Assembly: GCF_007097485.1 (NCBI RefSeq)
Contig: NZ_VKDE01000043.1
Coordinates: 1-32,154, forward strand
Direction: 5' to 3'
DNA: 32,154 nucleotides
From: Carboxylicivirga sp. M1479
GTDB lineage: Bacteria; Bacteroidota; Bacteroidia; Bacteroidales; Marinilabiliaceae
A program made the translations under genes and the position numbers. The notes under the pieces were generated by a model. That model did no database searches. It was not told where the DNA came from and worked only from the letters and a program-made list of their open reading frames with translations. Positions 9,594-25,850 of the stretch are shown here, one piece after another. How positions within the stretch are numbered: position 1 is the stretch's first letter; each line of letters starts with the position of its first letter.

Positions 9594-10517
9594 ATGAATC
9601 ATATAAACTATAAAAATATACGTGATTTTAATCTTTCTCAGAATCTGCCTGAGCCAGAGAATCCACTGTTTTGTATTGGGCACAAAAAGCTCAGCTCAAA
9701 TGAATTGATAAAGTGCAGTCCTTCCGGAGAAGAAGTGAGCTACTCCAATCAGTTTTATGTAATCAGCCTTAAAAATATTGTATCAGGCGAATTTCTGTAC
9801 GGACGTACAAAGTACGATGGCAGCACCGGAACAATGATGTTTTCGACTCCCGATCAGACTATTGTAGCCAAGGATGTAGTTGTCAGTTCTGAATCGTGGT
9901 ACATTCTTTTTCACGAAGATTTTATTCGTGGTTTGGACATTCAGAAAAAGATTAAGAACTACAACTTCTTTAATTATAATGTGAATGAGGCCTTGCACCT
10001 TTCGCCCAAGGAAGACCAAACCATAAAATCGATTTGCCACAATATTGAAACAGAATACCAAAATAACCAGGATGAGTTCAGCAAGGAAATAATTATATCT
10101 CATTTAGAGACCTTGTTAAAATATGCCGACCGCTTTTACAAACGTCAGTTCCTTAACCGAACAGAAATTAATAAGGATTTAATATGTCGATTTAAGGATG
10201 TTTTAGATTCTTATTTTGAAAAGGAGCAGCAAATCGAAAATGGTATTCCTTCAATAGAATGGATAGCCGTGCAGCTAGGTATTAGTCATCGTTATATGAG
10301 TGATACCATAAAAGCCGAAACAGGAAAGACTGCCATTGACCAAATTAATTTGTATTTGGTAGAAGAAGCCAAGAATCTGTTATTAGCCCCAAATGCTTCT
10401 ATCTCTGCAACCGCTTATCAATTAGGATTTGAATATCCACAGTATTTTTCTCGCTTGTTTAAAAAGAAAACAGGATTAAGTCCCAAGGAGTATATTGAGA
10501 ACGCGGAGTTTAATTAA
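9594..10517 (+). CDS. AraC-family transcriptional regulator
   Basis: The protein has 307 residues. The N-terminal ~190 form a ligand-binding or oligomerisation domain of the kind found in AraC proteins, with no enzyme motif. The C-terminal ~100 are the double helix-turn-helix: first helices around IEWIAVQLGISHRYMSDTIK, then the hallmark ISATAYQLGFEYPQYFSRLF and KKKTGLSPKEYIE. It is a DNA-binding activator or repressor with an unknown effector. It stands alone, downstream of the dehydrogenase/membrane-protein pair and 538 bp upstream of the glycogen locus, and could regulate either. The dehydrogenase pair is the more usual partner type. Confidence 0.93.
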   Translation: MNHINYKNIRDFNLSQNLPEPENPLFCIGHKKLSSNELIKCSPSGEEVSYSNQFYVISLKNIVSGEFLYGRTKYDGSTGTMMFSTPDQTIVAKDVVVSSESWYILFHEDFIRGLDIQKKIKNYNFFNYNVNEALHLSPKEDQTIKSICHNIETEYQNNQDEFSKEIIISHLETLLKYADRFYKRQFLNRTEINKDLICRFKDVLDSYFEKEQQIENGIPSIEWIAVQLGISHRYMSDTIKAETGKTAIDQINLYLVEEAKNLLLAPNASISATAYQLGFEYPQYFSRLFKKKTGLSPKEYIENAEFN

Positions 10518-11055
10518 GCTTTTCGATTTACCAACCAACAGATTTTTCTCATTTATTTACCTCTATTTTCCTGTTCTTGCAATCAGTTGGAGTGTTATAG
10601 TAAGGCCTGCTGTCTAAGTGAGAGCGTTCTTCGTATGCGTACTTTGCGTACCCTACTATCGAACATGGTAGAAAAATGACTTACACAAATAGCGTTTAAT
10701 TGCCATAATCTCACCCACAAGTATGGCATATTAAAAAATATTGGACGAACTTTTCATTTCCTAAAAATAGGCTGTATTTAAAGTTAATAATTAACTAATG
10801 TATTCTTAATCTAATGTTGTTGTAAAATGATAAATTCAAAATAACGAACGAACAATTAGGGGGTGTAACTGTTTGAAATGTTAAAAAATACAGATTTAAA
10901 GTGAAGAATCAGGGGTGTAACTCTGAAAAAGCTAAAAAAAATTAAAATTTAGTATTAAAACAAGATGTGCAATGAAAAAACAATTACTTTAGATGTGAGT
11001 TTTATATAAGTCTCAGTCAGTTAATCGAATTTAACCAAACTATTCTCTTTAGCCT
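10518..11055. other. 538-bp leader region of the glycogen locus
   Basis: No gene is supported. A 44-codon minus-strand frame at 10549-10680 is protein-like but unrecognised. The 3' half is very A/T-rich and carries the pair of direct repeats listed separately, and it must hold the promoter of the debranching-enzyme gene. No exact TTTG/TAnnTTTG pair was found. Confidence 0.45.
10860..10922 (+). promoter_or_regulatory. Two direct repeats of GGGGTGTAACT upstream of the glycogen locus
   Basis: GGGGTGTAACT occurs at 10860-10870 and again at 10912-10922, 52 bp apart (about five helical turns). Both copies are followed by similar A-rich sequence containing TGAAA. They stand out as the only G-rich words in an A/T-rich leader and lie 134-196 bp before the debranching-enzyme start. 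Binding sites for an activator such as the upstream AraC-type protein are a reasonable guess, not shown by sequence. Confidence 0.45.
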
Positions 11056-12990
11056 ATGAGTTATTTAAAGTTTGATAAGGCTCAATTGGTCAATACCGAA
11101 TACTCTCTAACCAAAGAGTTTATTCGTACCAATAGAGCAGGATCATTTGCTAGTTCAACTATTATTAATTGCAATACACGCAAGTATCATGGCCTATTAA
11201 TTTGTCCAATCGCCGAGTACGGTGGAGATATGCATGTATTGTTATCATCATTGGATGAAACGGTCATACAACGTGGTGCTGCATTTAATTTGGGTATACA
11301 TAAGTATCCTGGGCAGTATAACCCCAAAGGGCATAAGTATGTAAGGGAATATGAGGTAGACCCAAACCCGGCCATTACCTACCGGGTAGGAGGGGTTTTG
11401 CTACGAAAAGAGTTGCTGCTGGTAGAAAAGGAGCAGCGTTTACTGGTTAAATATACCTTATTGGAAGCCAATTCAGCCACTACTATACGCTTTCAGCCAT
11501 TCTTAGCTTTTCGAAATATTCATGCCCTTACCAAAGCCAACATGGATGCTAATACTCGCGCAAAGGAAGTTAAAAATGGTATTGGAATTAAAATGTACGA
11601 TGGCTTTCCCCAGTTGTTTATGCAAACATCGCGTAGCTCAGAGTTTGTTCATGCGCCCGATTGGTTTTATAATATTGAGTACAAGGAAGAGAAGCTACGT
11701 GGTTATGAGTGTCATGAGGATCTTTTTGTTCCAGGTTATTTCGAGATGGAGATTAAAAAAGGAGAACCCATTGTGTTTGCTGCCGGCACCAGTGAAGTGG
11801 CTCCAAACGCGTTGACCCGACAATTTAATGCTGAGCTAAAAAAGCGCATCAACCGCGATAGTTTTGAAAGCTGCTTAACTAATGCGGCGCAACAGTCAAT
11901 AGCCAAAAAAGGCAAGAAAGCTAGTATTATCAACGGTTTTCCGTTTTTGAGCCATAGTGAGCGAAATACCTATTTATCATTACCCGGTTTGTGCCTTGCT
12001 CGTCAGGATGAGGAGGCTTTTTTAGATATTTTAAATACCTCAGTAAAAAGTATTACCAATCGTTTTTACGAGGACAAAGCATTGGTTAAAGATCGAACGT
12101 CTGTTGATGTTCCGCTTTGGTTTTTCTGGACTTTACAAAAGTACATTGAGTTTGGTGCCGATAAAAAAACGATATGGACCAAGTATCGTAAAATAATTAA
12201 GGAGATTTTACAGGCCTACAAAAACGGGAGTCATCTTGCTTCTGAGTTACATGAAAATGGCTTGTTATGGACCAGTAAAAAAGGTGTTACCTGGATGAAA
12301 GTACGCAATAACGGTACCTTTTTACAAAAACGAATGGGGTATGTTGTAGAAGTTAATGCACTCTGGTATAATGCTATTTGTTTTGCTCTTGAGTTATCCG
12401 AAACAACAGGAGACAAAGGTTTTGCCAAAGAATGGGGAGCTTATCCTCAAAAGATAGAAGAGAACTTTATAAAAGTATTCTGGAATGATGAAAAGGCTTA
12501 TTTGGCTGACTATGTGATGAGTGATTATAGTAGTTGGAGTATAAGGCCCAATATGTTATTTGCAGCATCGTTACCCTATTCATGCTTAAGCATGGAGCAA
12601 AAAAAATCAATTTTAGATAAGATTGAAAGTGATTTGTTAACGCCGCGAGGCCTACGAACACTATCGCCAAATAGTCAGGATTATTTGGGTGTTTTAAATG
12701 GGAATGAATACGATCGCAATAGAGCTTTTCATAATGGTTCTGTTTTTCCATGGTTATTTGGGCATTATGCCGAAACTTATTTGAAATTGCACAAATCATC
12801 TGGTGTAGCCAACATTAAACGACTACTTGAGGGTTTTGAAAGTTGTGTGATTGAGCACGGAATAGGCTCGCTCTCACAAGTTCATGACGGTAACCCTCCG
12901 CATAAACCTAATGAAGCAACTTCTTATGCACTTAGTGTTGCCGAAATTCTAAGGGTGGGTAAAATGATTAATAACACATCAAAAAAGTAG
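11056..12990 (+). CDS. Glycogen debranching enzyme homologue (GDE N + amylo-alpha-1,6-glucosidase-type C), probable active-site changes
   Basis: This 644-residue protein is the usual length for Bacteroidota GDE-type debranching enzymes. The N-terminal beta-rich domain (about 1-260) includes NRAGSFASS and NTRKYHGLL. An (alpha/alpha) barrel domain (about 275-640) includes VEVNALWYNA, LLTPRGLRTLSP and PPHKPNEATSYALSVAEILR. It would normally hydrolyse alpha-1,6 branch points in the cytoplasm. Three hallmark acidic residues are replaced: 'RDT.IALPGL' reads RNTYLSLPGL (N304), 'RD.AYH.GT.WPWL' reads RNRAFHNGSVFPWL (N555), and 'S.ElfDG' reads SQVHDG (Q608). 'TWMD/N' is TWMK (K415). All three amide codons were read directly. 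The fold looks conserved, but activity is doubtful. It is the first gene of the locus, 6 bp before the GT4 gene. Confidence 0.88.
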   Translation: MSYLKFDKAQLVNTEYSLTKEFIRTNRAGSFASSTIINCNTRKYHGLLICPIAEYGGDMHVLLSSLDETVIQRGAAFNLGIHKYPGQYNPKGHKYVREYEVDPNPAITYRVGGVLLRKELLLVEKEQRLLVKYTLLEANSATTIRFQPFLAFRNIHALTKANMDANTRAKEVKNGIGIKMYDGFPQLFMQTSRSSEFVHAPDWFYNIEYKEEKLRGYECHEDLFVPGYFEMEIKKGEPIVFAAGTSEVAPNALTRQFNAELKKRINRDSFESCLTNAAQQSIAKKGKKASIINGFPFLSHSERNTYLSLPGLCLARQDEEAFLDILNTSVKSITNRFYEDKALVKDRTSVDVPLWFFWTLQKYIEFGADKKTIWTKYRKIIKEILQAYKNGSHLASELHENGLLWTSKKGVTWMKVRNNGTFLQKRMGYVVEVNALWYNAICFALELSETTGDKGFAKEWGAYPQKIEENFIKVFWNDEKAYLADYVMSDYSSWSIRPNMLFAASLPYSCLSMEQKKSILDKIESDLLTPRGLRTLSPNSQDYLGVLNGNEYDRNRAFHNGSVFPWLFGHYAETYLKLHKSSGVANIKRLLEGFESCVIEHGIGSLSQVHDGNPPHKPNEATSYALSVAEILRVGKMINNTSKK

Positions 12991-12996
12991 TCGCTT

Positions 12997-14292
12997 ATGA
13001 AAGTATTAATGTTCGGGTGGGAATTTCCCCCTCATATATCCGGCGGCTTAGGTACAGCCTGTTATGGCTTAACAAAAGGTTTATCAAAAGTAGATGATTT
13101 AGATATTACTTTCGTTGTGCCAAAAGCTTATGGTGATGAAGATCAGAGTAAAATGCAATTGGTTGGAGCTAACGGTGTTCATATTAAACAAGTGCAAGAG
13201 CACATTCAGCGATTTAAATCGAAACACACCTATTTGGAGGTTGAATCGGCTTTAATACCCTACAACGATCCTGATGAGTATTACTCTTTCAGAGATTCGG
13301 AGCTGTATGGTAAAAACAAATTATTTAAAGTCAATAAAGAGGGGAAGCTTGAGTTTACTGGTAAGTACGGGGCTAACCTCATTGATGAAATATATAAATA
13401 CGCCTACGTGGCATCAACCATAAGTATGGATCATGAGCACGATGTGATTCATGCACACGATTGGTTATGCTATCCTGCAGGCATTGCTGCCAAAGAGGTT
13501 TCGGGTAAGCCATTGGTAATTCATGTGCATGCCACCGATTTTGATCGAAGTGGTGGCAGTGTTAATCCAAAGGTGTTTGAGATTGAAAAAAGGGGAATGG
13601 ATGCAGCGGATAAAATAATCGCGGTAAGCAACCTTACCCGTAACATTGTAATCGAAAAGTATGGCCAAAGTCCAGATAAGGTAGAAACAGTATACAATGC
13701 GGTTGAACCGGTTTCCTTTGAAGAGAAAAAGGCCATAAAAAAAGGAGTGAAAGAAAAAGTTGTGACCTTTTTAGGGCGTATTACTATGCAAAAAGGTCCC
13801 GAATATTTTGTTGAAGCTGCCTATCAAGTGCTAAAACGAACCGATAACGTTCGCTTTGTGATGGCTGGTAGTGGTGATATGCTGGAAAAAATGGTGGCCA
13901 GAGCTGCTCAGCTTGGTATTAGCGATCGCTTTCATTTTACAGGCTTTTTAAAAGGCGATGATGTATTTCACATGTTCAAATTAAGCGATGTGTATGTTAT
14001 GCCATCGGTGTCGGAACCCTTTGGTATTTCGCCCTTGGAAGCCATGCAGTCAAATGTGCCGGTTATCATATCCAAACAGTCAGGTGTATCTGAAATACTC
14101 ACACACGCTGTTAAAGTAGACTATTGGGATATTGATGCGCTCGCCGATGCTATTTACGGCATTATTAAATATGATTCGTTATCGAATATATTTAAGTCAA
14201 AAGGAAAAGAAGAAGTTGATAACCTGAAGTGGACCAATGCCGCCATTCATGTGCATCAGGTGTATTCCAATACCATTAAAGAAACTGTTTAA
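12997..14292 (+). CDS. GT4-family glycosyltransferase (glycogen/glucan synthase-like)
   Basis: This 431-residue GT-B glycosyltransferase begins MKVLMFGWEFPPHISGGLGT, whose glycine loop binds the donor phosphate. The retaining-enzyme E-x7-E pair is E340 and E348 in SEPFGISPLEAM. AHDW (around 147-150) and HVHATDFDRSG resemble starch-synthase-like proteins. It probably transfers glucose from a nucleotide sugar to a glucan. It is sandwiched between a debranching-enzyme homologue (6 bp) and GH57 (18 bp), a conserved Bacteroidota trio. Its exact product, whether primer, linear glucan or modified end, is not evident. The true chain-elongating synthase may instead be the GT3 domain two genes on. Confidence 0.88.
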   Translation: MKVLMFGWEFPPHISGGLGTACYGLTKGLSKVDDLDITFVVPKAYGDEDQSKMQLVGANGVHIKQVQEHIQRFKSKHTYLEVESALIPYNDPDEYYSFRDSELYGKNKLFKVNKEGKLEFTGKYGANLIDEIYKYAYVASTISMDHEHDVIHAHDWLCYPAGIAAKEVSGKPLVIHVHATDFDRSGGSVNPKVFEIEKRGMDAADKIIAVSNLTRNIVIEKYGQSPDKVETVYNAVEPVSFEEKKAIKKGVKEKVVTFLGRITMQKGPEYFVEAAYQVLKRTDNVRFVMAGSGDMLEKMVARAAQLGISDRFHFTGFLKGDDVFHMFKLSDVYVMPSVSEPFGISPLEAMQSNVPVIISKQSGVSEILTHAVKVDYWDIDALADAIYGIIKYDSLSNIFKSKGKEEVDNLKWTNAAIHVHQVYSNTIKETV

Positions 14293-14310
14293 CCCCTAAA
14301 ACCTATTAGA

Positions 14311-15603
14311 ATGAAGTCTGTTTGTTTATATTTTCAGGTACATCAACCATTACGTTTACGTCGGTATCGTTTCTTCGATATTGGTAACGATCATTACTAT
14401 TACGATGATTTTACCAACGAGTCGATCATGAGAAAAATTGCTGACGAGTGTTATTTGCCAAGCAACAAAATATTACTGGACTTAATTAAAGCCAATGATC
14501 AGAAATTTAAAGTTAGTTTCTCCATTACTGGAGTTGCGCTTGATCAATTTGTATCTTATGCACCCGATGTAATAGAGAGTTTTAAAGAGTTGGCTGCCAC
14601 TGGCTGTGTTGAGTTTTTAGCAGAAACCTATTCGCATTCTTTGGCCGCTCTCAAGAATAAAGAAGAGTTTAAATCGCAAGTGAATGCGCATGTTGAGCGG
14701 ATAAAACTTCTATTTGGTCAAAAGCCCAAGGTATTTAGAAATACTGAAATGGTGTATTCCGATGAAATTGGCAAAATGGTGTCGGCTATGGGGTTTAAGG
14801 CCATGTTAACCGAAGGAGCAAAGCATGTGTTGGGATGGAAAAGTCCCAACTACCTCTATTGTAACGCCCTTAATCCCAAGCTAAAGTTATTAATGCGCAA
14901 TTATACTTTAAGTGATGACATTGCGTTTCGTTTTTCCGATGAAGGATGGAAAGAGTGGCCTTTAACAACTGATAAATTTGTGGGTTGGATGAGCCAGTTT
15001 GATGAGAAAGAAGATTTGGTGAATGTATTTATGGATTACGAAACCTTTGGAGAGCATCAGAAAAAAGAGTCAGGAATATTCGAATTTCTAAAGAGTTTAC
15101 CTCAAGCGGTTTTGGAAACCAAACAATTTAAGTTTGCCACACCATCAGAATTAGCGAAAGAGTATCAGCCAATAGCAGTGGCTCATGTGCCAAATGTAAT
15201 TTCCTGGGCAGATGAGGAACGAGATTTGTCGGCATGGCTTGGGAACGACTTGCAAGATGAAGCCTATGGGAAACTTTATGAACTGAGGGATGATGTGCTG
15301 GAGCTAAATGACGAACGACTACTTAAAGACTGGAATTACTTACAGAGTAGTGATCACTTCTATTATATGTGCACCAAGTTCTTTTCCGATGGCGATGTGC
15401 ATTCTTATTTTAACCCCTACGATTCGCCTTATGATGCCTTTATAAATTACATGAACGTTTTAAGTGATTTCAAAATTAGAATCGCAGAGATGAAGGTGAG
15501 TTCGGTACCTGTAAATGGAACTGAATTAGCTAAGAAAGATGAAATAATAGCACAATGTAAAGCGGAGATTAATGCCCTCAAAAAGCAAATTGTTGATCAT
15601 TAA
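14311..15603 (+). CDS. GH57-family glycoside hydrolase/transferase
   Basis: The protein has 430 residues. GH57 landmarks in order are HQP at 11-13, FLAETYSHS at 102-110, catalytic nucleophile E146 in RNTEMVYSDE, and acid/base D242 in MDYETFGEH. The key residues are intact and there is no signal peptide, so it acts on cytoplasmic alpha-glucan. Family members include alpha-amylases, 4-alpha-glucanotransferases and branching enzymes. The length and sequence fit the Bacteroidota 'alpha-amylase' branch, but specificity is not decided. The last ~25 residues form a short charged helix (KKDEIIAQCKAEINALKKQ). It is the third gene of the locus, 18 bp after GT4 and 103 bp before the synthase-phosphorylase fusion. 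Confidence 0.92.
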   Translation: MKSVCLYFQVHQPLRLRRYRFFDIGNDHYYYDDFTNESIMRKIADECYLPSNKILLDLIKANDQKFKVSFSITGVALDQFVSYAPDVIESFKELAATGCVEFLAETYSHSLAALKNKEEFKSQVNAHVERIKLLFGQKPKVFRNTEMVYSDEIGKMVSAMGFKAMLTEGAKHVLGWKSPNYLYCNALNPKLKLLMRNYTLSDDIAFRFSDEGWKEWPLTTDKFVGWMSQFDEKEDLVNVFMDYETFGEHQKKESGIFEFLKSLPQAVLETKQFKFATPSELAKEYQPIAVAHVPNVISWADEERDLSAWLGNDLQDEAYGKLYELRDDVLELNDERLLKDWNYLQSSDHFYYMCTKFFSDGDVHSYFNPYDSPYDAFINYMNVLSDFKIRIAEMKVSSVPVNGTELAKKDEIIAQCKAEINALKKQIVDH

Positions 15604-15706
15604 AAGGCTATTAGATATGACTTGCTCTGGACAAAACGTGTAAATGCACTTACATTCAGTTGCTGAGCTCTAAAAGTTAAACTGTCAAATACTAAATATT
15701 TTGTGT

Positions 15707-18700
15707 ATGAATAAAATAAAGCCAAACCCGGATTTTATTTTTGAAGTTAGCTGGGAAGTTTGTAATAAAGTAGGAGGAATTCATACCGTTATTTCTACCA
15801 AAGTATTATCGCTCAAGCAAAAGTTCAATGATAACATTATATATATCGGTCCTGATTTTAATTCCTCAGAACATCGCGATAAAGAGTTTGAGGAAGATGA
15901 AAAGCTTTATCCTGATTGGAAGAGAAAGGCAATTGAACTAGGTTTGCCAATCAGAATTGGTCGCTGGAAAATTCCTGGCAGGCCTATGGTGATATTGATC
16001 GATTTTAAGCCTTTGCTAAAAAATAAAGATGCTTTCTATGCAAAAATGTGGGAAGTATATGGTCTAGAGTCCTTGTACGGTGATATTGATTACCACGAGC
16101 CTGCTATTTTTGGTTATGCAGCAGGTCAGCTTATTGAGAGTTTTGTGAAAGAGAATATTTCTGTTCGCGAGAAAGTAATTGCACAGTTTCATGAGTGGAT
16201 GACAGGAGCAGGCTGCTTGTATATTGAGCATCATATGCCTGAGGTGGCCACCATTTTCACGACTCATGCAACGATGCTTGGACGTGTTTTGGCAAGTAAT
16301 AATGAAGCTTTGTATGATCAACTTTACCAGTTTGATACTATTGAGAAGACAAAACAGTACAATGTGTCAGCCAAATGTTCTTTGGAGAAGAAAGCTGCAT
16401 TGGCAGCTGACTGTTTAACAACTGTGAGTGAGATTACGGCAAAAGAGTGTAAGCAGTTTTATAACCGTGTGGTGGATGTAGTATTGCCCAATGGTTTTGA
16501 AGATGACTTTGTACCAAAACCTAATGATTTAAAAGGGAAACGTGCAGAGTCAAAAAAACATTTGCGTGAGGTAGCCGAAGCATTATTGGGATATAAGCTG
16601 GCGCCAAATGCCATGTTTATTGGTACAGGCGGGCGTTACGAATTTAAAAATAAAGGCATTGATGTATTGCTGGATGCCTTGGGAGAATTGAATCGTGATT
16701 ATGGGAATGAACGTGAGCTTGTTGCCTTTTTTCTTATCCCGGGAGATCAGCGAGGGCCTCGTCGCGATTTACAACAGAAACTGGAGAATAAACAGGCAGG
16801 TGAAACACTTGTTACACCTTTCTTAACTCATTATCTGGGAAATGTGGATCACGATCCCATCCTAAATAAAATAAAGGAGATTGGTTTTACCAATGGAGCC
16901 AATGAAAAGGTGAAAATCATCTTTGTGCCAACCTACCTTAACGGAAGTGACGGTATCTTTAATAAAGAGTACTATGATTTGCTTATGGGCTTGGATCTCT
17001 CGGTATTTCCATCCTATTACGAGCCTTGGGGCTATACGCCAATGGAAAGTGTCGCTTTTGGAGTGCCTACCTTAACTACATCTTTGGCAGGTTTTGGTAA
17101 GTGGGTCACGCTTTTTGAGGGCGATGGCAAGGGTGGTGTTGAGGTGCTTCATCGCAGCGATTCAAATACCGAAGAACTCACACGCAACATTGCCAACTAC
17201 CTTAAGGCTTTCTCGCACCATAATAGTGTTGAAATAGAAAAAATACGAGAAGATGCCCGCAGTATAGCTGAAAAGGCATTGTGGAAGAATTTCATTGGGT
17301 ATTATCATAAAGCATACGAAATTGCAATAAAAAATAACATGGATAAGGGAATCGATATAACAGAAAATAATCAATTACAAGTGGCCAAAAGTAATCAACT
17401 TCAGTGGCGAAAATTAGTAGTTGAATCAAACCTTCCTAAGGAGTTATTAGGGTTAGAGGAATTGTCAAAAAATTTATGGTGGTGTTGGAATTATCAAGCC
17501 ATTGACTTGTTTGAATCCATCGATCCTTTATTATGGGTTAAGGTAAAAAAGAATCCAATTGTTTTACTGAAAACGGTGACAAGCTCACGAATTAATGAGC
17601 TGGAAAAAGATAAAAATTTTATTGCTCGGTTTGGATCTGTTTATTCCGACTTTAAAGCATATATGGCCGTTAAGCCCAATGCGAAACAGCCACATATCGC
17701 CTATTTTAGTATGGAGTATGGCTTAAGCGATAACCTGAAAATATACTCTGGTGGGCTGGGTATTTTGGCGGGTGATTATTTAAAAGAAGCCAGTGATTCC
17801 AACGTAAACATGGTGGCTGTTGGTTTTATGTATAAATTCGGCTACTTCACTCAGCGCCTGTCTTTAAATGGCGAGCAATTGGTTGAATTAAATGCTCAAC
17901 GTTTTTCTCAATTACCCATTCGCTTGGTTCGCGATAATGCAGGCGTTCCAACAACGATTGATTTCCATTTGGAGGGAAGAACCGTAAAGGCAATGATTTG
18001 GGAAGTGAATGTAGGTCGAATAAAACTGTATTTGCTCGACACAGATACAGATATGAATGACGAGCAGGATAGAGGTTTAACCCATCAGTTGTATGGAGGA
18101 GATTGGGATAATCGCATCAAACAAGAAATATTACTTGGCCTTGGAGGAATCAGAGCCTTAGATGCATTGGGAATTGAGTCCGATATTTTTCATTGTAACG
18201 AGGGGCATGCAGCGCTTATTAATGTTGAGCGCCTACGAAAACTGAGAATTGAAGGCTATTCATACGACGAAGCCATGGAAATTGTGCGCACGTCCTCTTT
18301 ATTTACGACTCACACGCCTGTGCCAGCTGGTCATGATACTTTTGCACCAGATATGATACGCCATTATTTGTATTATATACCAAAGGAATTGGGCATCACT
18401 TGGGAACAGTTTTTGGCACTTGGTCGCGTTAATCCATTGGATGATAACGAGAAATTCTCGATGAGTAACCTGGCTGCTCATACTTCAATTGCTATGAATG
18501 GGGTAAGTTGGTTACATGGTAAAATTTCGCAAGAAATGTTCAATAATTTATACGATGGATATTTTCCTGAGGAATTACACATAGGATATGTTACCAATGG
18601 TGTCCATTACCCTACCTGGACGGCCAAAGAGTGGCGCAGTCTTTACGAGCGTGAGTTTAAAACGGGATTTATTAATGATTTGTCGAACAAGAGTTATTGG

Positions 18701-19930
18701 GAGAAAATTCACGATATAGACGATGATAAAGTTTGGGAAACCAAAACAAAATTGCGAAAGAAGCTTATTGATTATGCCAAAGATCGCTTCCATCGTAATT
18801 GGATTCGCCGCTATGAAGACCCAAAGAGTCTGGTTGATATCCTTGATTCGATTGACGAAAACACCTTAACTATTGGATTTGCTCGACGTTTTGCAACATA
18901 TAAACGAGCGCACCTCTTGTTTAGCGATCTGGAGCGATTATCGAAAATACTGAATAACCCCAAAAAGCCTGTTCAATTTATTTTTGCTGGGAAAGCACAT
19001 CCCGCGGATAAGGCAGGTCAAGATCTGATTAAGTTAATAGTCGATGTGTCACGTCGTCCAGAGTTTGTTGGGAAGATACTTTTCCTTGAGAATTACGACA
19101 TGGAGCTAGGACAGAAATTGGTTAAAGGTGTTGATATTTGGATGAATACCCCAACACGACCACTGGAAGCATCTGGTACATCGGGCGAAAAAGCCGTGAT
19201 GAATGGTGTGATGAATTTTAGTGTACTTGATGGATGGTGGTTAGAGGGTTATCGAAAAGGAGCCGGTTGGGCATTAACTGAAAAGCGTACCTATGAAAAC
19301 CAGGCTTATCAGGATGAGTTGGATGCTCAAACGATTTATTCGATGTTTGAAAATGATATTGTTCCGCTCTTTTATAAAAGAGATGAGAATAATATACCTG
19401 TTGATTGGGTCAAGTACATCAAAAATTGCATCGCTGATATTGCTCCTGATTACACCACTAAACGTATGATGGACGATTATAAAGAGCGTTTTTATGAGCC
19501 GATGTTTAAGCGTCTTAAAAAAGTGCGTTTGAACGATTATGAAATGGCCAAATCAATCACCCAATGGAAACAACGGATTCTTAACTCGTGGGATAAAATA
19601 GAAGTAGTGTCTGTAGATGCACCTAGTACACCTAAGCATAAATATTTATCAGGAGAATCTTATCACATGGAGGTAGCTCTGGATTTGAAAGACCTAATAG
19701 ATGAGAATATCTGTGTGGAGCTGGTAATTCGTACAACTGCTAACGACGAAGAGTCGGGGCCAATTACCACCGAAAAGTTTTCGCAAGTAAGAAAAGTGGA
19801 TTCATTGGCATTTTATGAGTTGGATCTGGAATTGGAAGACCCTGGTGTTTTTGACTTTGGTTTTAGGGTTTATGCATGTAATCCTACTTTAGCGCACCGT
19901 CAGGATTTTTCATATGTGAAATGGATTTAG
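15707..19930 (+). CDS. Glycogen synthase (GT3) - alpha-glucan phosphorylase (GT35) fusion
   Basis: The protein has 1407 residues from ATG 15707 (two further codons upstream start with TTG and are not favoured). Residues 1-545 are a eukaryote-type glycogen synthase: FEVSWEVCNKVGGIHTV near the N-terminus, GRYEFKNKGIDVLL, and E439/E447 of the E-x7-E motif in YYEPWGYTPMES. After a short linker, about 575-655 match the DUF3417 lid of bacterial alpha-glucan phosphorylases (LSKNLWWCWN). The phosphorylase follows to about 1300, with PLP lysine K1162 in GTSGEKAVMNG, then a ~100-residue C-terminal beta domain. One half adds glucose from a nucleotide sugar and the other removes it as glucose-1-phosphate. 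Both catalytic sets look intact. The shared chain implies coordinated control or substrate sharing. Confidence 0.93.
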   Translation: MNKIKPNPDFIFEVSWEVCNKVGGIHTVISTKVLSLKQKFNDNIIYIGPDFNSSEHRDKEFEEDEKLYPDWKRKAIELGLPIRIGRWKIPGRPMVILIDFKPLLKNKDAFYAKMWEVYGLESLYGDIDYHEPAIFGYAAGQLIESFVKENISVREKVIAQFHEWMTGAGCLYIEHHMPEVATIFTTHATMLGRVLASNNEALYDQLYQFDTIEKTKQYNVSAKCSLEKKAALAADCLTTVSEITAKECKQFYNRVVDVVLPNGFEDDFVPKPNDLKGKRAESKKHLREVAEALLGYKLAPNAMFIGTGGRYEFKNKGIDVLLDALGELNRDYGNERELVAFFLIPGDQRGPRRDLQQKLENKQAGETLVTPFLTHYLGNVDHDPILNKIKEIGFTNGANEKVKIIFVPTYLNGSDGIFNKEYYDLLMGLDLSVFPSYYEPWGYTPMESVAFGVPTLTTSLAGFGKWVTLFEGDGKGGVEVLHRSDSNTEELTRNIANYLKAFSHHNSVEIEKIREDARSIAEKALWKNFIGYYHKAYEIAIKNNMDKGIDITENNQLQVAKSNQLQWRKLVVESNLPKELLGLEELSKNLWWCWNYQAIDLFESIDPLLWVKVKKNPIVLLKTVTSSRINELEKDKNFIARFGSVYSDFKAYMAVKPNAKQPHIAYFSMEYGLSDNLKIYSGGLGILAGDYLKEASDSNVNMVAVGFMYKFGYFTQRLSLNGEQLVELNAQRFSQLPIRLVRDNAGVPTTIDFHLEGRTVKAMIWEVNVGRIKLYLLDTDTDMNDEQDRGLTHQLYGGDWDNRIKQEILLGLGGIRALDALGIESDIFHCNEGHAALINVERLRKLRIEGYSYDEAMEIVRTSSLFTTHTPVPAGHDTFAPDMIRHYLYYIPKELGITWEQFLALGRVNPLDDNEKFSMSNLAAHTSIAMNGVSWLHGKISQEMFNNLYDGYFPEELHIGYVTNGVHYPTWTAKEWRSLYEREFKTGFINDLSNKSYWEKIHDIDDDKVWETKTKLRKKLIDYAKDRFHRNWIRRYEDPKSLVDILDSIDENTLTIGFARRFATYKRAHLLFSDLERLSKILNNPKKPVQFIFAGKAHPADKAGQDLIKLIVDVSRRPEFVGKILFLENYDMELGQKLVKGVDIWMNTPTRPLEASGTSGEKAVMNGVMNFSVLDGWWLEGYRKGAGWALTEKRTYENQAYQDELDAQTIYSMFENDIVPLFYKRDENNIPVDWVKYIKNCIADIAPDYTTKRMMDDYKERFYEPMFKRLKKVRLNDYEMAKSITQWKQRILNSWDKIEVVSVDAPSTPKHKYLSGESYHMEVALDLKDLIDENICVELVIRTTANDEESGPITTEKFSQVRKVDSLAFYELDLELEDPGVFDFGFRVYACNPTLAHRQDFSYVKWI

Positions 19931-19959
19931 TTCTTCTGAATTTATAACCCGTATTTGTT

Positions 19960-20026
19960 GATATTGCTAATTGTAATATCCTAATAACTTTATCTCGACC
20001 TCTTGCTTAATCATCGAGAGGTTGAG
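19960..20026 (+). other. Two intergenic hairpins before the branching enzyme
   Basis: GATATT 19960-19965 pairs with AATATC 19975-19980, and CTCGACCTCT 19994-20003 pairs with AGAGGTTGAG 20017-20026 (one G-T pair). Neither has a T-run, so mRNA processing or stability elements are more likely than full terminators. Confidence 0.4.
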
Positions 20027-20110
20027 AGTTGAAATAGTTAAAGCAAGTGCACGAGCTTTTTTACTTGAGTTTTTGTGTCTTATTTATTTAATAGCTTTTC
20101 CAATAAGCCT

Positions 20111-22117
20111 ATGCTTACGCACATAACCCGTCAGGATGCTTTATTGCAGCCGTTTGAAAGTCTTATAAATAGAAGAACTGAGAAAGCCTTTGCTAAGGAA
20201 CAGGATTTGGTTTCAAGCTCTTTGTACGACTTTGCCAACGGACATAATTATTATGGCATTCATTCGCACAACGAGCAATGGGTAATTAGGGAATGGGCGC
20301 CCAATGCCTCAAAAATTTATTTGATTGGGATCTTTTCCGAATGGAAAGAACGTGATGAGTTTTGTTTCCAAAAAAAAGAGAATGGTAATTTTGAGCTCTT
20401 CATTAACAAGTCCATCCTCCAGCATAAGGATATTTATAAACTCAAAATTTATTGGCCTGGAGGTTCTGGTGAGCGCATTCCAGTTTGGGCCACTCGTGTA
20501 ATACAGGATGAAATAACAAAAGTTTTTTCTGCTCAGGTATGGCAACCACAGCAATCTTTTCAATGGCAACACACTGCAAAAACCAGAAACCACAAAGTGC
20601 CATTGATTTATGAAGCACATATAGGAATGGCCACCGAAAAGGAGAGCGTTGGGACCTATAATGAGTTTAGATTAAATGTGCTGCCGCGCATTAAAGAAGC
20701 TGGTTACAACACGATACAGCTCATGGCTATACAAGAGCATCCATATTATGGTTCTTTTGGTTACCATGTATCCAGTTTGTTCGCCGCATCGTCTCGCTTT
20801 GGTACGCCTGATGAATTAAAAGCGTTGGTTGACGAAGCGCATGGCTTGGGCATTAATGTGATAATGGATATTGTGCATTCGCATGCGGTAAAAAATGAGT
20901 TGGAAGGAATTGGGTGGTTCGATGGTTCTCCTTATCAGTTCTTTCATGCTGAAGAGAGGCGTGAGCATGTTGCCTGGGATTCTTTGTGCTACAACTATGC
21001 TAAAGATGAGGTACTTCATTTGCTCTTGTCCAACATCAAGTATTGGATGGATGAGTATCAGTTTGATGGTTTTCGCTTCGATGGTGTTACGAGCATGCTT
21101 TACCTTGATCACGGACTATCTCGCGATTTTACATCATACGATTTGTATTTCGATAATGGACAGGACGAAGATGCGATTACGTATTTTATGCTGGCAAATA
21201 AGCTGATGAAGCAAATTAATCCTGCATCTATCAGCGTTGCAGAGGAAATGAGTGCTTACCCTGGCTTAACGGCTTCTATGGAGCAAGGTGGTTTGGGTTT
21301 TGACTATCGTCTGGCCATGGGAACACCTGATTATTGGATTAAGTTAATCAAAGAGAAGAAAGATGAAGAGTGGGATGTGGGCAATATATTTTATGAATTA
21401 ACCAACAAGCGCATTGAGGAGCAAACCATCAGTTATGCCGAGTCTCATGATCAAGCCTTAGTGGGTGATCAAACTATTATTTTTCGATTGATAGGTGCTG
21501 ATATGTATTGGGGCATGGATAAATCGAATAAAAGCTTGATAGTTGATAGAGGTATGGCTTTGCATAAAATCATCCGTTTGATTACGTTTTGCTGTGCAGG
21601 CAATGGCTATCTTAACTTTTTGGGTAATGAGTTCGGGCATCCCGAGTGGATTGATTTTCCACGCGAGGGAAATGATTGGTCCTATAAACATGCACGCCGC
21701 CAATGGAGTCTGGTTGATAATTCTAACTTACGCTTTGAGCAATTGGGGGCTTTTGACAAAGCGATGGTTCGACTGCAGGAAAAAGAATTGTTTATTAACG
21801 AGCAATTTATTGAGTGTATGGAGGCGAATGTATCTGATCAGGTGTTGGCTATAAAGCGAAAAGATTTACTTTTTGTTTTTAATATGAATCCAAGTGAATC
21901 ATTTACCTTTTATGGTGTTTCTGCACCAGCAGGAAAATACAATGTGGTATTAAATTCCGATGACGAGGTGTTTGGTGGATACAGTCGTGTTGATGGAGAA
22001 AAAGATTATTTTTCGCGACCAGAGGCTCAGCTTTCCAATCGCCACCGATTACACCTGTACTTACCAAGCCGGACGGCTATTGTGTTAAAACATACTCCAC
22101 CAAAACGCATTTTCTAA
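20111..22117 (+). CDS. glgB: 1,4-alpha-glucan branching enzyme (GH13, eukaryote-like type)
   Basis: The protein has 668 residues from ATG 20111. A GTG twelve codons upstream (20075) is in frame, but the conserved part begins near the ATG (DALLQPFESLINRR). An N-terminal CBM48-like segment (about 45-150, EWAPNASKIYLIG) precedes the GH13 barrel. Barrel regions are I (DIVHSH), II with nucleophile D324 (GFRFDGVTSMLY), III with acid/base E378 (SVAEEMSAYPG) and IV with H446/D447 (YAESHDQALVGD). The GVTSMLY and AEEMS motifs mark the branching enzymes shared with plants and animals (GH13_8) rather than the E. coli GlgB type. It cuts alpha-1,4 chains and re-joins them by alpha-1,6 bonds. It is followed after one base by the GH13 amylase gene. 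Confidence 0.94.
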   Translation: MLTHITRQDALLQPFESLINRRTEKAFAKEQDLVSSSLYDFANGHNYYGIHSHNEQWVIREWAPNASKIYLIGIFSEWKERDEFCFQKKENGNFELFINKSILQHKDIYKLKIYWPGGSGERIPVWATRVIQDEITKVFSAQVWQPQQSFQWQHTAKTRNHKVPLIYEAHIGMATEKESVGTYNEFRLNVLPRIKEAGYNTIQLMAIQEHPYYGSFGYHVSSLFAASSRFGTPDELKALVDEAHGLGINVIMDIVHSHAVKNELEGIGWFDGSPYQFFHAEERREHVAWDSLCYNYAKDEVLHLLLSNIKYWMDEYQFDGFRFDGVTSMLYLDHGLSRDFTSYDLYFDNGQDEDAITYFMLANKLMKQINPASISVAEEMSAYPGLTASMEQGGLGFDYRLAMGTPDYWIKLIKEKKDEEWDVGNIFYELTNKRIEEQTISYAESHDQALVGDQTIIFRLIGADMYWGMDKSNKSLIVDRGMALHKIIRLITFCCAGNGYLNFLGNEFGHPEWIDFPREGNDWSYKHARRQWSLVDNSNLRFEQLGAFDKAMVRLQEKELFINEQFIECMEANVSDQVLAIKRKDLLFVFNMNPSESFTFYGVSAPAGKYNVVLNSDDEVFGGYSRVDGEKDYFSRPEAQLSNRHRLHLYLPSRTAIVLKHTPPKRIF

Positions 22118-22118
22118 A

Positions 22119-23819
22119 ATGGAAACTCAAAAACTAGTTATTTATCAGTTATTTCCACGTTTGTTTGGTAATAAAAGCACCAATTTAATAGTTAATGGTG
22201 GCAGAGATGAAAATGGATGTGGTAAGCTAAACGACATTAATGATATTGCCTTATCCGAACTAAAAAAGATGGGGGTAACGCACGTTTGGTTAACGGGAGT
22301 TATTGAGCATGCAATTGTAAAAGGCTATCCCGCAAATGGTATTGAAGATGGTAACCCACTGCTTATAAAAGGCAATGCAGGATCGCCATATGCTATAAAA
22401 GATTATTACGACGTTAACCCAGATCTTGCCACTGATGTAAGTGAACGTTTGACAGAATTTAAAGAATTAGTTAAACGTTGCCATGCTCAAGGTTTAAAGG
22501 TAATAATTGATTTTGTACCTAATCATTTGGCAAGAGAGTATAAGTCTGATATGAAACCAGAATACATAGATGATTTTGGTGTTCATGACGATCATAGCAA
22601 GGCTTTTTCTGCCAATAATAACTTCTACTACCTACCATCTAGCACTTTGCAATTGCCAACTGAACTAACGCAAAGGTTTCCCGAATGTAATTATGAAGAA
22701 ACGCCTGCTAAAGTTACTGGCAATGATCGATTTGTAGCGGAGCCAGATGTGAACGATTGGTACGAAACCATCAAGCTTAATTACGGAGTTGATTACGAAA
22801 ATGGAGGTACAAAACACTTTGATCCTATACCTGATACATGGCTGAAGATGAAAGATGTGCTTAGCTATTGGAACAGCTTGGGTGTTGATGGCTTTCGATG
22901 TGATATGGTGGAAATGGTTCCTGTCGAGTTCTGGGCTTGGTTAATTCCTCAAATTAAACAAATCAGCCCTTGGATGTGCTTTATAGCTGAGGTTTATAAT
23001 CCTAAGCTGTACCAATCCTATATTCAATGTGGAGGCTTTGATTACTTGTATGATAAGGTGGGCTTGTATGATACCTTGCGATCGGTAATGTGTCATAATA
23101 AGTCGGCCACTGCTATTTCAGAATGTTGGCAAAACCTACAGGGAATAGATAAAAACATGCTGCGTTTTCTCGAAAATCATGACGAACAACGTATTGCATC
23201 GCATCATTTTGTTGGTCAGCCCCAAAGAGCAATTCCTGCAATGGCTCTTTCAACATTCCTACATCAGGGACCCGTAATGCTATATAATGGTCAGGAACAT
23301 GGAGAGCAGGCTGTTGGTATTTCAGGATTTAGTGGCGATGATGGACGTACGACAATTTTTGATTATTGGAATATGCCCGAACACCAAAAGTGGATGAACA
23401 ATGGCGCATTTGATGGTGCACTTTTGTCAGATGAACACAAGCAACTACGTCAAGCCTATGCTGATATGTTCAAATATGCCCAATTACCAGCCATTCGAGA
23501 CGGCTTGTTCTACGATGTAATGTGGCAAAATAATGATGTTGGTTTGTTTAATAAACACCGATGTTATGCCTTCATACGCTATAGTTCAACCCAGCAATTA
23601 TTAATCATTTGTAACTTTGATGATACCTCGCAGCATGTTCATTTAAAAATACCATCTGATGCCTTACAAATTTTAGATATCCCAAGGCCTATTTTAGTTC
23701 GCTTTGCAAATATTGCTGATCAACAGCTTAGTAGTATAGGTAGCGAAGAATTAATAAATGATGGTTTAAAACTTATCATTCCCGCATTCGGATATCAAAT
23801 TTTAGATATTTCCAGCTGA
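22119..23819 (+). CDS. Cytoplasmic GH13 alpha-amylase-type enzyme
   Basis: This 566-residue GH13 enzyme has all four conserved regions: DFVPNH, GFRCDMVEM with nucleophile D262, FIAEVYN with acid/base E291, and ENHDEQR with H354/D355. A C-terminal beta domain covers roughly 475-566. There is no signal peptide, lipobox or carbohydrate-binding extension, so it works on intracellular glucan rather than as a Sus-type exported enzyme. Its ATG is separated from the branching-enzyme stop by a single base, which implies a tightly coupled transcript. It could hydrolyse maltodextrins released by the phosphorylase, or supply debranching if the GDE homologue is inactive. Specificity cannot be read from sequence alone. 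Confidence 0.9.
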   Translation: METQKLVIYQLFPRLFGNKSTNLIVNGGRDENGCGKLNDINDIALSELKKMGVTHVWLTGVIEHAIVKGYPANGIEDGNPLLIKGNAGSPYAIKDYYDVNPDLATDVSERLTEFKELVKRCHAQGLKVIIDFVPNHLAREYKSDMKPEYIDDFGVHDDHSKAFSANNNFYYLPSSTLQLPTELTQRFPECNYEETPAKVTGNDRFVAEPDVNDWYETIKLNYGVDYENGGTKHFDPIPDTWLKMKDVLSYWNSLGVDGFRCDMVEMVPVEFWAWLIPQIKQISPWMCFIAEVYNPKLYQSYIQCGGFDYLYDKVGLYDTLRSVMCHNKSATAISECWQNLQGIDKNMLRFLENHDEQRIASHHFVGQPQRAIPAMALSTFLHQGPVMLYNGQEHGEQAVGISGFSGDDGRTTIFDYWNMPEHQKWMNNGAFDGALLSDEHKQLRQAYADMFKYAQLPAIRDGLFYDVMWQNNDVGLFNKHRCYAFIRYSSTQQLLIICNFDDTSQHVHLKIPSDALQILDIPRPILVRFANIADQQLSSIGSEELINDGLKLIIPAFGYQILDISS

Positions 23820-23929: not shown

Positions 23930-25834
23930 ATGAATCGTTTATTAAGCTTAGTATTATTGAGCCTTACTATGGTAGGAGCTCTTGCTCAGGATAATGTTAT
24001 TTTATCTATTGAAAATCAGCAGTTCTCAGTTGATGAATTCAATTATATTTTCGAAAAAAATAATGCTTTAACCCAAGAGCCTGTCAGTAAAAATGAATAC
24101 GTAGACCTGTTTGTCAACTATAAACTTAAGGTGGCCGAAGCAATGGCACAAGGGTATGATACTTTGAGTAGCTTTAAGCAAGAATTAAATTATTATAGAG
24201 ACGAGCTGGCTAAACCTTATTTAAATGATAAAAAGGCAACTGAAGAAGTTGTTGAAGAAGCTTATCAACACATGTTGTATGAGATTGAAGCATCACATAT
24301 TCTTATCAAACTGCCAAAATCGCCAAGCCCAAAAGATACATTAGAGGCCTATAACAAGGTGGCTAAAATAAAAAGCCAGTTAAGCAAAGGAAAGGATTTC
24401 AAACAGATGGCTATTGAGTTTTCTGAGGGGCCCTCTGGAAAGAACGGTGGTCATTTGGGTTATTTTGGTGCTTTTATGATGGTATATCCGTTTGAAAAGG
24501 CGGCTTATAATACTCCTGTTGGTGAAGTGTCGGACATAACGCGTACTTCATTTGGATACCATTTGATTAAAGTTCATAACAAGAGAAAAAACCAAGGTGA
24601 AATATTAGTTGCTCACATTATGAAGGCTTTTCCCTATCAAGCCAACGAGCAAATTCAAAACCAATCTAAGATCGCAATTGATTCTATTCATCGTAAGTTA
24701 ATGAATGGTGAGTCGTTTGATGAGATGGTAGCGCAGTTTTCTGATGATAAACAAACAGTAGCCAATAAAGGACAGCTTCCTTGGTTTGGTTCGGGGCGAA
24801 TGGTGCCTGAATTTAGTGATGCAGCCTTTGGTTTGGCAAAAGATGGCGATATTTCTCAACCCGTTAAAACACAGTTTGGTTGGCACATTATTCAGCGTTT
24901 AGATAGTCGCCCTGTTAAACCAATTGATGAATGCAAGGATGAAATTATGCAAAAGATAAAGCGCGATGAGCGTGCTTTTGCTGGAAAAAAGGCGACCGTT
25001 GAGCGATTAAAAAATGAATATAATTACACGGTTAATGCTAATGATTATCAGCAATTGACTCAAATTGTAGTTAAGAATAGTCAATTGGAAAAAGAGGCTT
25101 TCATTAAAAAGATAAATGATGCTTCTTTAAAAGTTGCCTCATTCGCTGATGTAGTTTTTGATTCTGAGAAGATAGCCAATGAAGCCTTTCCGTTTAATTT
25201 GCCTGAAAAAGGTTTAAGCGATGCTGATTTTCAACAAGTGTGGGATGCTTATGTTGAAGACGAATTGCTTGCATATGAGAAGAGTCAATTGGAAGCGAAG
25301 TATCCAGAATTTAAGTTTCTGATGAACGAATACCACGATGGTTTATTAATTTTTGAGATTAGTCAAAAGGAAATTTGGAACAAAGCATCAAACGATAGTA
25401 TTGGTTTGGCTTCATTTTACGAACACAATAGTTCGAATTATATTCTGGACGAACATTTTGAAGGGCAACTATATTATTGCAAATCAAAAAAAGTACTGAA
25501 ACAGTTGAAAAAAGCTTTAAAGAAACAACCTGAACTGGTATTAGACTCATTAAGTGCTGAATTAAAAGATAATATCTTATTGAAAGAAGGGCGTTTTTTT
25601 AAAGGTGATGAAGTGCAGTTAGATGCCCAGATTTGGAAAGAAAAAGCTAGTGTTATCAATGTCAATTATCCATACTTATTCACGCAAGGAACAAAAGTAG
25701 CAGAAAGTACTCAGATGCTTGATGAGGTAAGAGGGCGTGTTATTTCTGATTATCAGGAGCAGTTAGAGAAAGAATGGATTAACTCACTACATGAAAAGTT
25801 TAAACCAGAGGTAAATACTTTTGTAATTAAGTAA
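23930..25834 (+). CDS. Periplasmic PpiC-type peptidyl-prolyl isomerase with two rotamase domains
   Basis: The protein has 634 residues. A signal peptide is visible (MNRLLSLVLLSLTMVGALA, likely cut after A19). A SurA-N-like helical part covers about 20-115. Two parvulin domains follow at about 118-218 (ASHILIKL, GGHLGYFG, SFGYHLIKV) and 222-328 (LPWFGSGRMVPEF, FGWHIIQRL). The C-terminal 300 residues have no family I recognise and may bind substrate. It should act as a foldase/chaperone for outer-membrane or secreted proteins. It leads a cluster with a lipoprotein (44 bp gap) and a SurA homologue, a pattern also seen in Bacteroides. Confidence 0.9.
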   Translation: MNRLLSLVLLSLTMVGALAQDNVILSIENQQFSVDEFNYIFEKNNALTQEPVSKNEYVDLFVNYKLKVAEAMAQGYDTLSSFKQELNYYRDELAKPYLNDKKATEEVVEEAYQHMLYEIEASHILIKLPKSPSPKDTLEAYNKVAKIKSQLSKGKDFKQMAIEFSEGPSGKNGGHLGYFGAFMMVYPFEKAAYNTPVGEVSDITRTSFGYHLIKVHNKRKNQGEILVAHIMKAFPYQANEQIQNQSKIAIDSIHRKLMNGESFDEMVAQFSDDKQTVANKGQLPWFGSGRMVPEFSDAAFGLAKDGDISQPVKTQFGWHIIQRLDSRPVKPIDECKDEIMQKIKRDERAFAGKKATVERLKNEYNYTVNANDYQQLTQIVVKNSQLEKEAFIKKINDASLKVASFADVVFDSEKIANEAFPFNLPEKGLSDADFQQVWDAYVEDELLAYEKSQLEAKYPEFKFLMNEYHDGLLIFEISQKEIWNKASNDSIGLASFYEHNSSNYILDEHFEGQLYYCKSKKVLKQLKKALKKQPELVLDSLSAELKDNILLKEGRFFKGDEVQLDAQIWKEKASVINVNYPYLFTQGTKVAESTQMLDEVRGRVISDYQEQLEKEWINSLHEKFKPEVNTFVIK

Positions 25835-25850
25835 CAATACTATACTTTCG
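25820..25850 (+). promoter_or_regulatory. Candidate promoter (-33 TTTG / -7 TACTTTCG) for the lipoprotein gene
   Basis: TTTG at 25820-25823 and TACTTTCG at 25843-25850 are separated by 19 bp, the spacing of Bacteroidota -33/-7 promoters (TTTG-N19-TAnnTTTG, one mismatch in the -7). The start codon is at 25879. The -33 box lies inside the end of the preceding gene. Confidence 0.45.

What the first reader, a model, noticed from the sequence alone, without database searches (positions are those of the whole stretch)
11056..12990. Debranching-enzyme homologue with three acid-to-amide changes at hallmark positions
Three signature acidic residues are replaced by their amides: RNTYLSLPGL (N304) for 'RDT.IALPGL', RNRAFHNGSVFPWL (N555) for 'RD.AYH.GT.WPWL', and SQVHDG (Q608) for 'S.E.fDG'. 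TWMK (K415) also departs from TWMD/N. The codons (AAT, AAT, CAA) are clear and the flanking motifs are intact, so this is not a frameshift. Three isosteric replacements in one chain suggest a protein that still binds branched glucan but does not cleave it, possibly a scaffold or sensor for the locus, or one with altered chemistry. The family motifs are from memory.
Basis: partly seen in the sequence, partly recalled or inferred. Interest (0 to 1): 0.75.

Follow-up and report, generated by a model that had tools for sequence, protein, structure and literature searches.

The report
Catalytically dead debranching enzyme kept by selection
A marine bacterium's glycogen gene cluster carries a debranching-enzyme relative that has lost its acid, its base and its sugar-gripping aspartate, yet its altered active site is identical in nine related species, so it probably works without cutting glycogen.

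Summary
ORF 11056-12990 (+) is a full-length GDE_N/GDE_C (GH133-type) protein with N304, K415, N555 and Q608. Aligned to Candida glabrata GDE, N304 matches Asp1078 (D1078N abolishes glucosidase activity), K415 the general acid Asp1241 and Q608 (by spacing) the general base Glu1492.

All three catalytic positions are non-acidic in 9 of 14 genomes of the window's genus (Carboxylicivirga-like) and in 0 of 218 other rows (intermediate L059, two of three, kept apart). The nine differ only silently at the changed codons; dN/dS is 0.04-0.07 (3 usable pairs of 36). It is the only GDE found in its genome and heads the GDE-GT4-GH57-GlgA/P cluster. An intact and a half-changed relative outline a stepwise path.

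Most likely it is a selected pseudoenzyme: a non-hydrolytic alpha-glucan-binding partner of the glycogen machinery, comparable in logic to plant ISA2. Catalytic loss is well supported; the binding or partner role is inference. Caution: losses at single positions recur in the family, and new fixed acids (E302, E620) leave altered chemistry open.

The parts
11056..12990 (+). GDE-like protein (644 aa), predicted catalytically dead amylo-1,6-glucosidase homologue
11113..11772 (+). N-terminal GDE_N domain (residues 20-239)
11965..11967 (+). N304 (AAT), aligned with Asp1078 of C. glabrata GDE (-1 subsite anchor)
   Evidence: PMC4837477
12298..12300 (+). K415 (AAA), aligned with the general acid Asp1241; preceded by a 2-residue deletion and followed by loss of the PVTPR motif
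12718..12720 (+). N555 (AAT), family-conserved Asp with no acidic counterpart in C. glabrata GDE
12877..12879 (+). Q608 (CAA), aligned (by equal spacing, via chain 8zeq) with the general base Glu1492
12997..14292 (+). GT4-type glycosyltransferase, operon partner; next to GDE in both the altered and the ordinary loci compared
14311..15603 (+). GH57 protein, operon partner; catalytic motifs look intact by eye
15701..19930 (+). glycogen synthase-like / alpha-glucan phosphorylase fusion (1409 aa)
20075..22117 (+). GlgB-like GH13 (680 aa); catalytic motifs look intact by eye
22119..23819 (+). GH13 alpha-amylase-like protein (566 aa), relatives widespread in the family, so not a dedicated replacement

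Best explanation
The protein is a pseudoenzyme derived from a bacterial GH133-type amylo-1,6-glucosidase. It is predicted to fold like the enzyme but cannot carry out the inverting hydrolysis: the proton donor is Lys, the water-activating base is Gln and the Asp that holds the -1 glucose is Asn (shown at sequence level by homology to C. glabrata GDE). The changed pocket is itself conserved, so it has a function (shown: purifying selection). Most likely it binds alpha-glucan branch ends, or a partner enzyme, without cutting, and so acts as a non-catalytic subunit or regulator of the GT4/GH57/GlgA-P glycogen machinery with which it is co-encoded (inferred). Trimming of branch stubs in these cells would fall to other enzymes, for example the GH15 protein found in every genome of the genus (inferred).
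For: Alignment of N304 and K415 with Asp1078 and Asp1241, and of Q608 (by equal 16-residue spacing to Q1508) with Glu1492 (PMC4837477 section 7; PMC13299489 passages). In yeast GDE D1078N abolished glucosidase activity, and D1241A and E1492A had no significant debranching activity. The set is in 9 of 14 genus genomes and absent from 218 other rows. Synonymous codon variation at all four sites and dN/dS 0.04-0.07 in the 3 usable pairs of 36. Within the clade the GDE/GH57 distance ratio is 0.96 against 1.18 for ordinary pairs. Of 98 columns at least 96% conserved in 113 relatives, 85 are kept in all nine and 6 have the same replacement in all nine. The only GDE found in the genome, at the head of the GDE-GT4-GH57-GlgA/P cluster; the same order in the three other altered loci fetched with long flanks, and GDE-GT4-GH57 in L059. 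A stepwise series in one clade: L183 fully acidic, L059 N304/N415/N555 with E608, then the nine. GH15 in 14 of 14 genus genomes. Precedent: noncatalytic ISA2 in plants (PMC12510319, abstract and passages).
Against: No activity, binding or interaction data. Losses at the same positions recur in presumably functional relatives: 415 is Asn in 42 of 218 and 304 is non-Asp in 13 of 218, so the mapping from yeast may overstate the damage. Measured against GT4, the GDE of the clade is faster than in ordinary pairs (distance ratio 2.38 against 1.37); GH57 is fast there too, so I read this as a slow GT4, but mild relaxation of GDE is not excluded. New fixed acids E302 and E620 could rebuild a reaction centre. 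No model coordinates were available to inspect the pocket. GH15 is equally present in the genomes with an ordinary GDE, so it does not explain the loss.
Confidence: 0.6

Rival explanations
1. Altered chemistry: the pocket was rebuilt rather than killed. New acids E302 and E620, lysine 415 and the reshaped 416-425 loop form a different active site or bind an anionic ligand (sugar phosphate, nucleotide sugar).
For: E302 (0 of 218 others), E620 (2 of 218) and K415 (0 of 218) are fixed in all nine, and E302 and E620 are already in the intermediate L059. A 2-residue deletion before K415 and loss of PVTPR. Further replacements near the motifs are invariant in the nine. The best Foldseek matches are GH94 phosphorylases.
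Against: Inverting hydrolases and phosphorylases of this fold need a general acid at or near the position now Lys (recalled for GH94/GH65). GH94 similarity is expected for the GH133 fold in general (recalled). No coordinates to show that E302 and E620 face the pocket.
Confidence: 0.15
2. It is still an ordinary amylo-1,6-glucosidase: these positions tolerate change and the enzyme remains active.
For: Across 228 rows position 304 changes between Asp and other residues at least 12 times (8 times between acid and non-acid) and 415 between acid and non-acid at least 14 times. Asn at 415 is common in rows labelled Bacteroidaceae, Prevotellaceae and Dysgonomonadaceae.
Against: Position 608 changes only 3 times on the tree and none of 218 other rows loses all three. 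D1078N, D1241A and E1492A are each inactivating in yeast GDE.
Confidence: 0.17
3. A decaying gene: function was lost and the reading frame has merely not broken yet.
For: Catalytic residues were lost stepwise; one relative in the family (G704) has a GDE in pieces with stops; GDE is faster relative to GT4 in the clade.
Against: dN/dS 0.04-0.07 (3 of 36 pairs usable), silent-only codon variation at the four sites, full-length frames in nine genomes whose proteins are 71-81% identical to the window's.
Confidence: 0.04

Closest known systems
GH133 / archaeal-type glycogen debranching enzyme (Pfam GDE_N + GDE_C; TIGR01561)
   Same: Both domains full length, conserved R303, W413, R426, G428, E432, H559 and G561; GT4 and GH57 neighbours as in ordinary relatives.
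   Different: General acid, general base and -1 Asp replaced; PVTPR loop and 2 residues lost; TIGR01561 score 301.9 against a cut-off of 364.15.
Candida glabrata GDE glucosidase domain (5d06 and mutants)
   Same: Related barrel domain; motif-level alignment and Foldseek matches.
   Different: No glucanotransferase domain; Asp1078, Asp1241 and Glu1492 correspond to Asn, Lys and Gln.
Plant isoamylase 2 (ISA2), noncatalytic GH13 debranching paralogue
   Same: A debranching-enzyme homologue that lost its catalytic residues and is kept by selection in a storage-glucan pathway (PMC12510319, abstract and passages).
   Different: Different family (GH13); ISA2 has an active paralogue ISA1 as partner, here no GDE paralogue was found in the genome.
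GT4-GH133-GH57 gene cluster of Picrophilus torridus (archaea)
   Same: Same three-gene grouping (PMC11046441, passages).
   Different: That GH133 protein is described there only as a putative amylo-1,6-glucosidase; its residues were not examined here.

Membership tests
GH133 by homology (GDE_N + GDE_C) | GDE_N and GDE_C domains above the curated cut-offs | tested here: met
   259.4 bits against 27 and 232.1 against 21
Active amylo-1,6-glucosidase (EC 3.2.1.33) | General acid at the Asp1241 position | tested here: not met
   K415
Active amylo-1,6-glucosidase (EC 3.2.1.33) | General base at the Glu1492 position | tested here: not met
   Q608; mapping to Glu1492 is by equal spacing through chain 8zeq
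Active amylo-1,6-glucosidase (EC 3.2.1.33) | -1 subsite Asp (Asp1078) | tested here: not met
   N304
Active amylo-1,6-glucosidase (EC 3.2.1.33) | Hydrolysis of alpha-1,6 glucose stubs | not testable with these tools
   needs purified protein
NCBIfam TIGR01561 (gde_arch) | Score above the curated cut-off 364.15 | tested here: not met
   301.9 bits; ordinary relatives were not scored for comparison
Pseudoenzyme under selection | Catalytic residues lost in a retained, constrained gene | tested here: met
ISA2-like noncatalytic subunit | Physical complex with an active glucan enzyme, or glucan binding | not testable with these tools
   only co-encoding with GT4/GH57 is shown
Inverting phosphorylase of the same fold (GH94-like) | General acid retained (recalled) | tested here: not met
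   Lys at the acid position
Inverting phosphorylase of the same fold (GH94-like) | Phosphate site in place of the base (recalled) | not tested
   no coordinates available

The most novel reading that the evidence does not exclude
In Bacteroidota the GH133 protein of the GT4-GH57 glycogen cluster has a second, non-hydrolytic job (glucan-binding subunit or regulator of the GT4 glucan-making step). That job is sufficient by itself, which would explain why catalytic residues have changed repeatedly in this phylum and been lost completely in the Carboxylicivirga clade, without a second copy.
Probability: 0.25. Interest if true: 0.72.

Novelty: new variant of a known kind. Interest (0 to 1): 0.56.

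Why it matters
A debranching enzyme that lost catalysis but stays single-copy and constrained inside a glycogen operon would give bacteria a counterpart of plant ISA2 and a simple genetic system to test what debranching-enzyme folds do for glycogen besides cutting it. The stepwise series (intact, half-changed, fully changed) in close relatives makes the order of events testable at the bench.

Tried and rejected
Replacement by the neighbouring GH13 gene (22119-23819): rejected, relatives of it occur in 63 of 71 family genomes, also in genomes with an ordinary GDE. A pullulanase or GlgX as a new debrancher: 0 of 14 genus genomes pass the cut-off for TIGR02104 or TIGR02100, although all 14 have weaker GH13 matches. 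Of those in the own genome, three look secreted or lipoprotein-like by eye, two are the window's own GH13 genes, and one (G000:C40, 541-aa frame) was not examined. GH77: 1 of 14, an ordinary-GDE genome. GH15: 14 of 14, so no contrast between altered and ordinary genomes. GH31 and other alpha-glucosidases were not searched. Sequencing error or frameshift: rejected by nine genomes. A second GDE: none found. N304 as a single ancestral event shared with L062: not favoured, because L183 and L184 are intact, though the L062/L184 branch has support 55 only. Correlated change of 304 with 555 or 415: suggestive counts but the phylogenetic pair test was not significant (median p 0.125 for both; 304 with 608 median p 1). 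Promoter and terminator scan of 10400-20100: counts near the shuffled mean (28 against 31.5; 9 against 7.1), nothing to use. Literature: no paper on a catalytically dead GH133 was found by 'glycogen debranching' + 'pseudoenzyme' (1 paper listed, not opened), 'GH133' + 'catalytically inactive' (1 listed, not opened), 'Bacteroides' + 'GH133' + 'glycogen debranching' (3 listed, passages of one seen), 'Carboxylicivirga' + 'glycogen' (2 listed, not opened) and a B. thetaiotaomicron search (none); this covers only the held open-access library.

Rows dropped before counts. One search used 119 other rows (113 for the column test) and one search used 122 (with L062, L183 and L184 among them). Loci with under 93% coverage of the protein, a fixed list of duplicate and re-fetched loci, partial rows (L112, L116) and three very divergent rows whose motifs aligned poorly (L047-L049) were left out. 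One search added 96 of 100 loci fetched (4 dropped as duplicates), making 218 others. Those 100 were taken in order of score from the list (one, G035, passed over), so the sample leans to close relatives: about 130 of the 265 matching genomes were read. The 63 rows were chosen by hand. In one search the altered set held re-fetched copies of three loci. One search's sample of the phylum gave 23 hits of 395, 20 over the cut-off.

Full report
What is there. ORF 11056-12990 (+) encodes 644 aa with full-length GDE_N and GDE_C domains. It scores 301.9 bits against TIGR01561, the archaeal-type debranching enzyme, below that model's cut-off of 364.15. It heads a glycogen cluster: GT4 glycosyltransferase, GH57 protein, a 1409-aa glycogen-synthase/phosphorylase fusion, a GlgB-like GH13 and another GH13. 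A search of the own genome found no second homologue. The nearest named sequences are Carboxylicivirga species (71-81% identity), so I take the window to be from that genus; the genome itself is unnamed.

The residues. N304, K415, N555 and Q608 are as reported. A profile of 44 relatives aligned to C. glabrata GDE (5d06/5d0f) puts R303-N304-T on R1077-D1078-V and T-W-M-K415 on T1238-W1239-M1240-D1241; counting the printed letters gives these numbers. H559 falls on H1425. Q608 aligns with the Glu of 'LPELTNEN' in chain 8zeq. That Glu lies 16 residues before a TQAWS Gln, the same spacing as C. glabrata Glu1492 to Gln1508; Gln1508 is named among the glucosidase-site residues in PMC13299489 (passages). 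The Glu1492 assignment is thus by spacing, not by a printed alignment to that chain. PMC4837477 (section 7 read) places Asp1241 and Glu1492 on glucoamylase Glu179 and Glu400 (acid and base), reports that D1241A and E1492A lack significant debranching activity, and that D1078N abolishes glucosidase activity. So K415 is at the general-acid position, and N555 (aligned with no acid in that enzyme) is the least telling of the four.

How unusual. In one search I compared 218 relatives other than the nine altered ones and the intermediate L059. Position 608 is Glu in 216 (Gly in L064, Gln in L287); 304 is Asp in 205 (Glu 5, Asn 3, Gly 2, Gln, Tyr and His 1 each); 415 is Asp 169, Asn 42, Glu 7; 555 is Asp in 200. 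Counting 304/415/608, 168 have acids at all three, 48 at two, 2 at one and none at zero. On a FastTree tree of 228 rows the least number of changes of state is 12 for Asp304 (8 for acid against non-acid), 14 for an acid at 415 and 3 for Glu608; such counts cannot tell loss from regain. The sample leans towards close relatives (see Tried and rejected).

The clade. All 14 genomes of the genus have one GDE match. Nine carry the altered form; five carry an ordinary form at 47-49% identity, all five with the order GDE-GT4-GH57-GlgA/P, which was also seen in three other altered loci with long flanks. In the tree of 63 rows (quick method), the nine form one group (100*), with L059, from a contig labelled Marinifilum MAG, as sister (100*), then L183 from an unnamed family (96*), then L062 and L184. 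L183 has the complete acid set. L059 has N304, N415, N555 and E608. The nine have N304, K415, N555, Q608 (for the window and L128; for the rest). An Asn-to-Lys step at 415 fits the codons (AAT in L059, AAA/AAG in the nine). L062 carries N304 and S555 with D415 and E608, probably an independent event. The GT4 tree has the same grouping, and the five ordinary genus members fall with their family, so the GDE-GT4 pair of the altered genomes appears to have a different origin from that of the other five. The GH57 tree does not resolve this, and in the GlgA/P tree, which has no row from the L183 family, the altered clade is sister to the own family (99*), so the whole operon need not share that origin.

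Selection. At each of the four sites the nine genes use both synonymous codons (AAT/AAC, AAA/AAG, AAT/AAC, CAA/CAG). dN/dS is 0.040, 0.041 and 0.069 in the 3 pairs of 36 that were usable, like the one usable ordinary pair of 10 (0.053) and GH57 (0.046 and 0.052, 2 of 21), and higher than GT4 (0.009 and 0.017, 2 of 21). Distance ratios to GH57 show no speed-up inside the clade (0.96 against 1.18 for ordinary pairs) and a modest excess between altered and ordinary (1.34); ratios to GT4 are higher inside the clade (2.38 against 1.37). Since GH57 shows the same against GT4, I read it as a slow GT4, but it is the one rate result that could mean relaxation. Of 98 columns at least 96% conserved in 113 relatives, 85 are unchanged in all nine, and six carry one and the same replacement in all nine: A293N, W297F, D304N, D555N, E608Q, G620E. 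The segment 290-312 is on average 49% identical to L183 although L183 and L184 agree at 96% there. A 2-residue deletion before TWMK and loss of the PVTPR segment reshape the same area. This looks like a remodelled, conserved pocket, not random decay.

Fold. AlphaFold2 gave mean pLDDT 92.3 and pTM 0.90. Foldseek against the PDB lists GH94 phosphorylases first, then among the top 50 the T. gammatolerans amylo-1,6-glucosidase 7vma, C. glabrata GDE, GH116 and GH63 entries.

Mechanism. Without acid, base and -1 Asp the inverting hydrolysis should not run. The conserved remainder (R303, W413 and H559, aligned with yeast ligand contacts, and R426, G428, E432, G561, all kept) suggests the cavity still binds something. 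Co-encoding with GT4, GH57 and GlgA/P points to a role on glycogen. I therefore propose a non-catalytic glucan-binding partner, comparable in logic to plant ISA2, a debranching-enzyme paralogue that is noncatalytic and conserved (PMC12510319, abstract and passages). The binding and partner steps are inferred. Other enzymes could remove branch stubs: a GH15 protein is present in 14 of 14 genus genomes, while pullulanase and GlgX models pass their cut-off in 0 of 14 and GH77 in 1 of 14.

What speaks against it. There are no activity data. Asn at 415 is common in gut families whose enzymes are presumed to work, and 304 varies. New invariant acids (E302, two residues before N304; E319; E620, twelve residues after Q608) could support different chemistry. 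These are carried as rivals.

Novelty. The family, the gene cluster and the idea of noncatalytic debranching-enzyme homologues are known. A single-copy, selection-maintained GH133 protein without its acid and base in a bacterial glycogen operon was not found in the searches. I rate it a new variant of a known kind.

Noticed in passing
L032, L083, L091, L096, L118 and similar rows; window-equivalent position 415: Many GDE rows labelled Bacteroidaceae, Prevotellaceae or Dysgonomonadaceae have TWMN, Asn at the position aligned with the general acid of yeast GDE (42 of 218 rows over all groups). Whether those enzymes are active is unknown.
   Followed up: partly
L064, L249, L268, L231, L277, L237, L245, L261, L283, L287: Other candidate impaired GDEs: L064 has E304 with G608; L249 Q304/N415; L268 N304/N415; L231 and L277 G304; L237 N304/N555; L245 E304/N415; L261 Y304; L283 H304; L287 Q608 with D304 and D415.
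   Followed up: no
genus g1: G685, G686, G687, G696, G697 against the other nine: Apparently two origins of the GDE-GT4 pair within one genus, in the same operon order, suggesting replacement or transfer; GH57 and GlgA/P trees do not settle it.
   Followed up: partly
G704:C211:74641-76555: GDE in three pieces with stops inside, a likely pseudogene in the same family.
   Followed up: no
window 20075-23819: The GlgB-like and GH13 genes lie directly behind the GlgA/P fusion in the window, but the GH13 gene's relative lies on a different contig from the GDE operon in the other eight altered genomes.
   Followed up: no
window 23930-28392: Three neighbouring genes downstream: two PPIC-type peptidyl-prolyl isomerases (23930-25834 and 27001-28392) with a gene between (25879-26739) that has only a weak EpsD-type isomerase match.
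   Followed up: no
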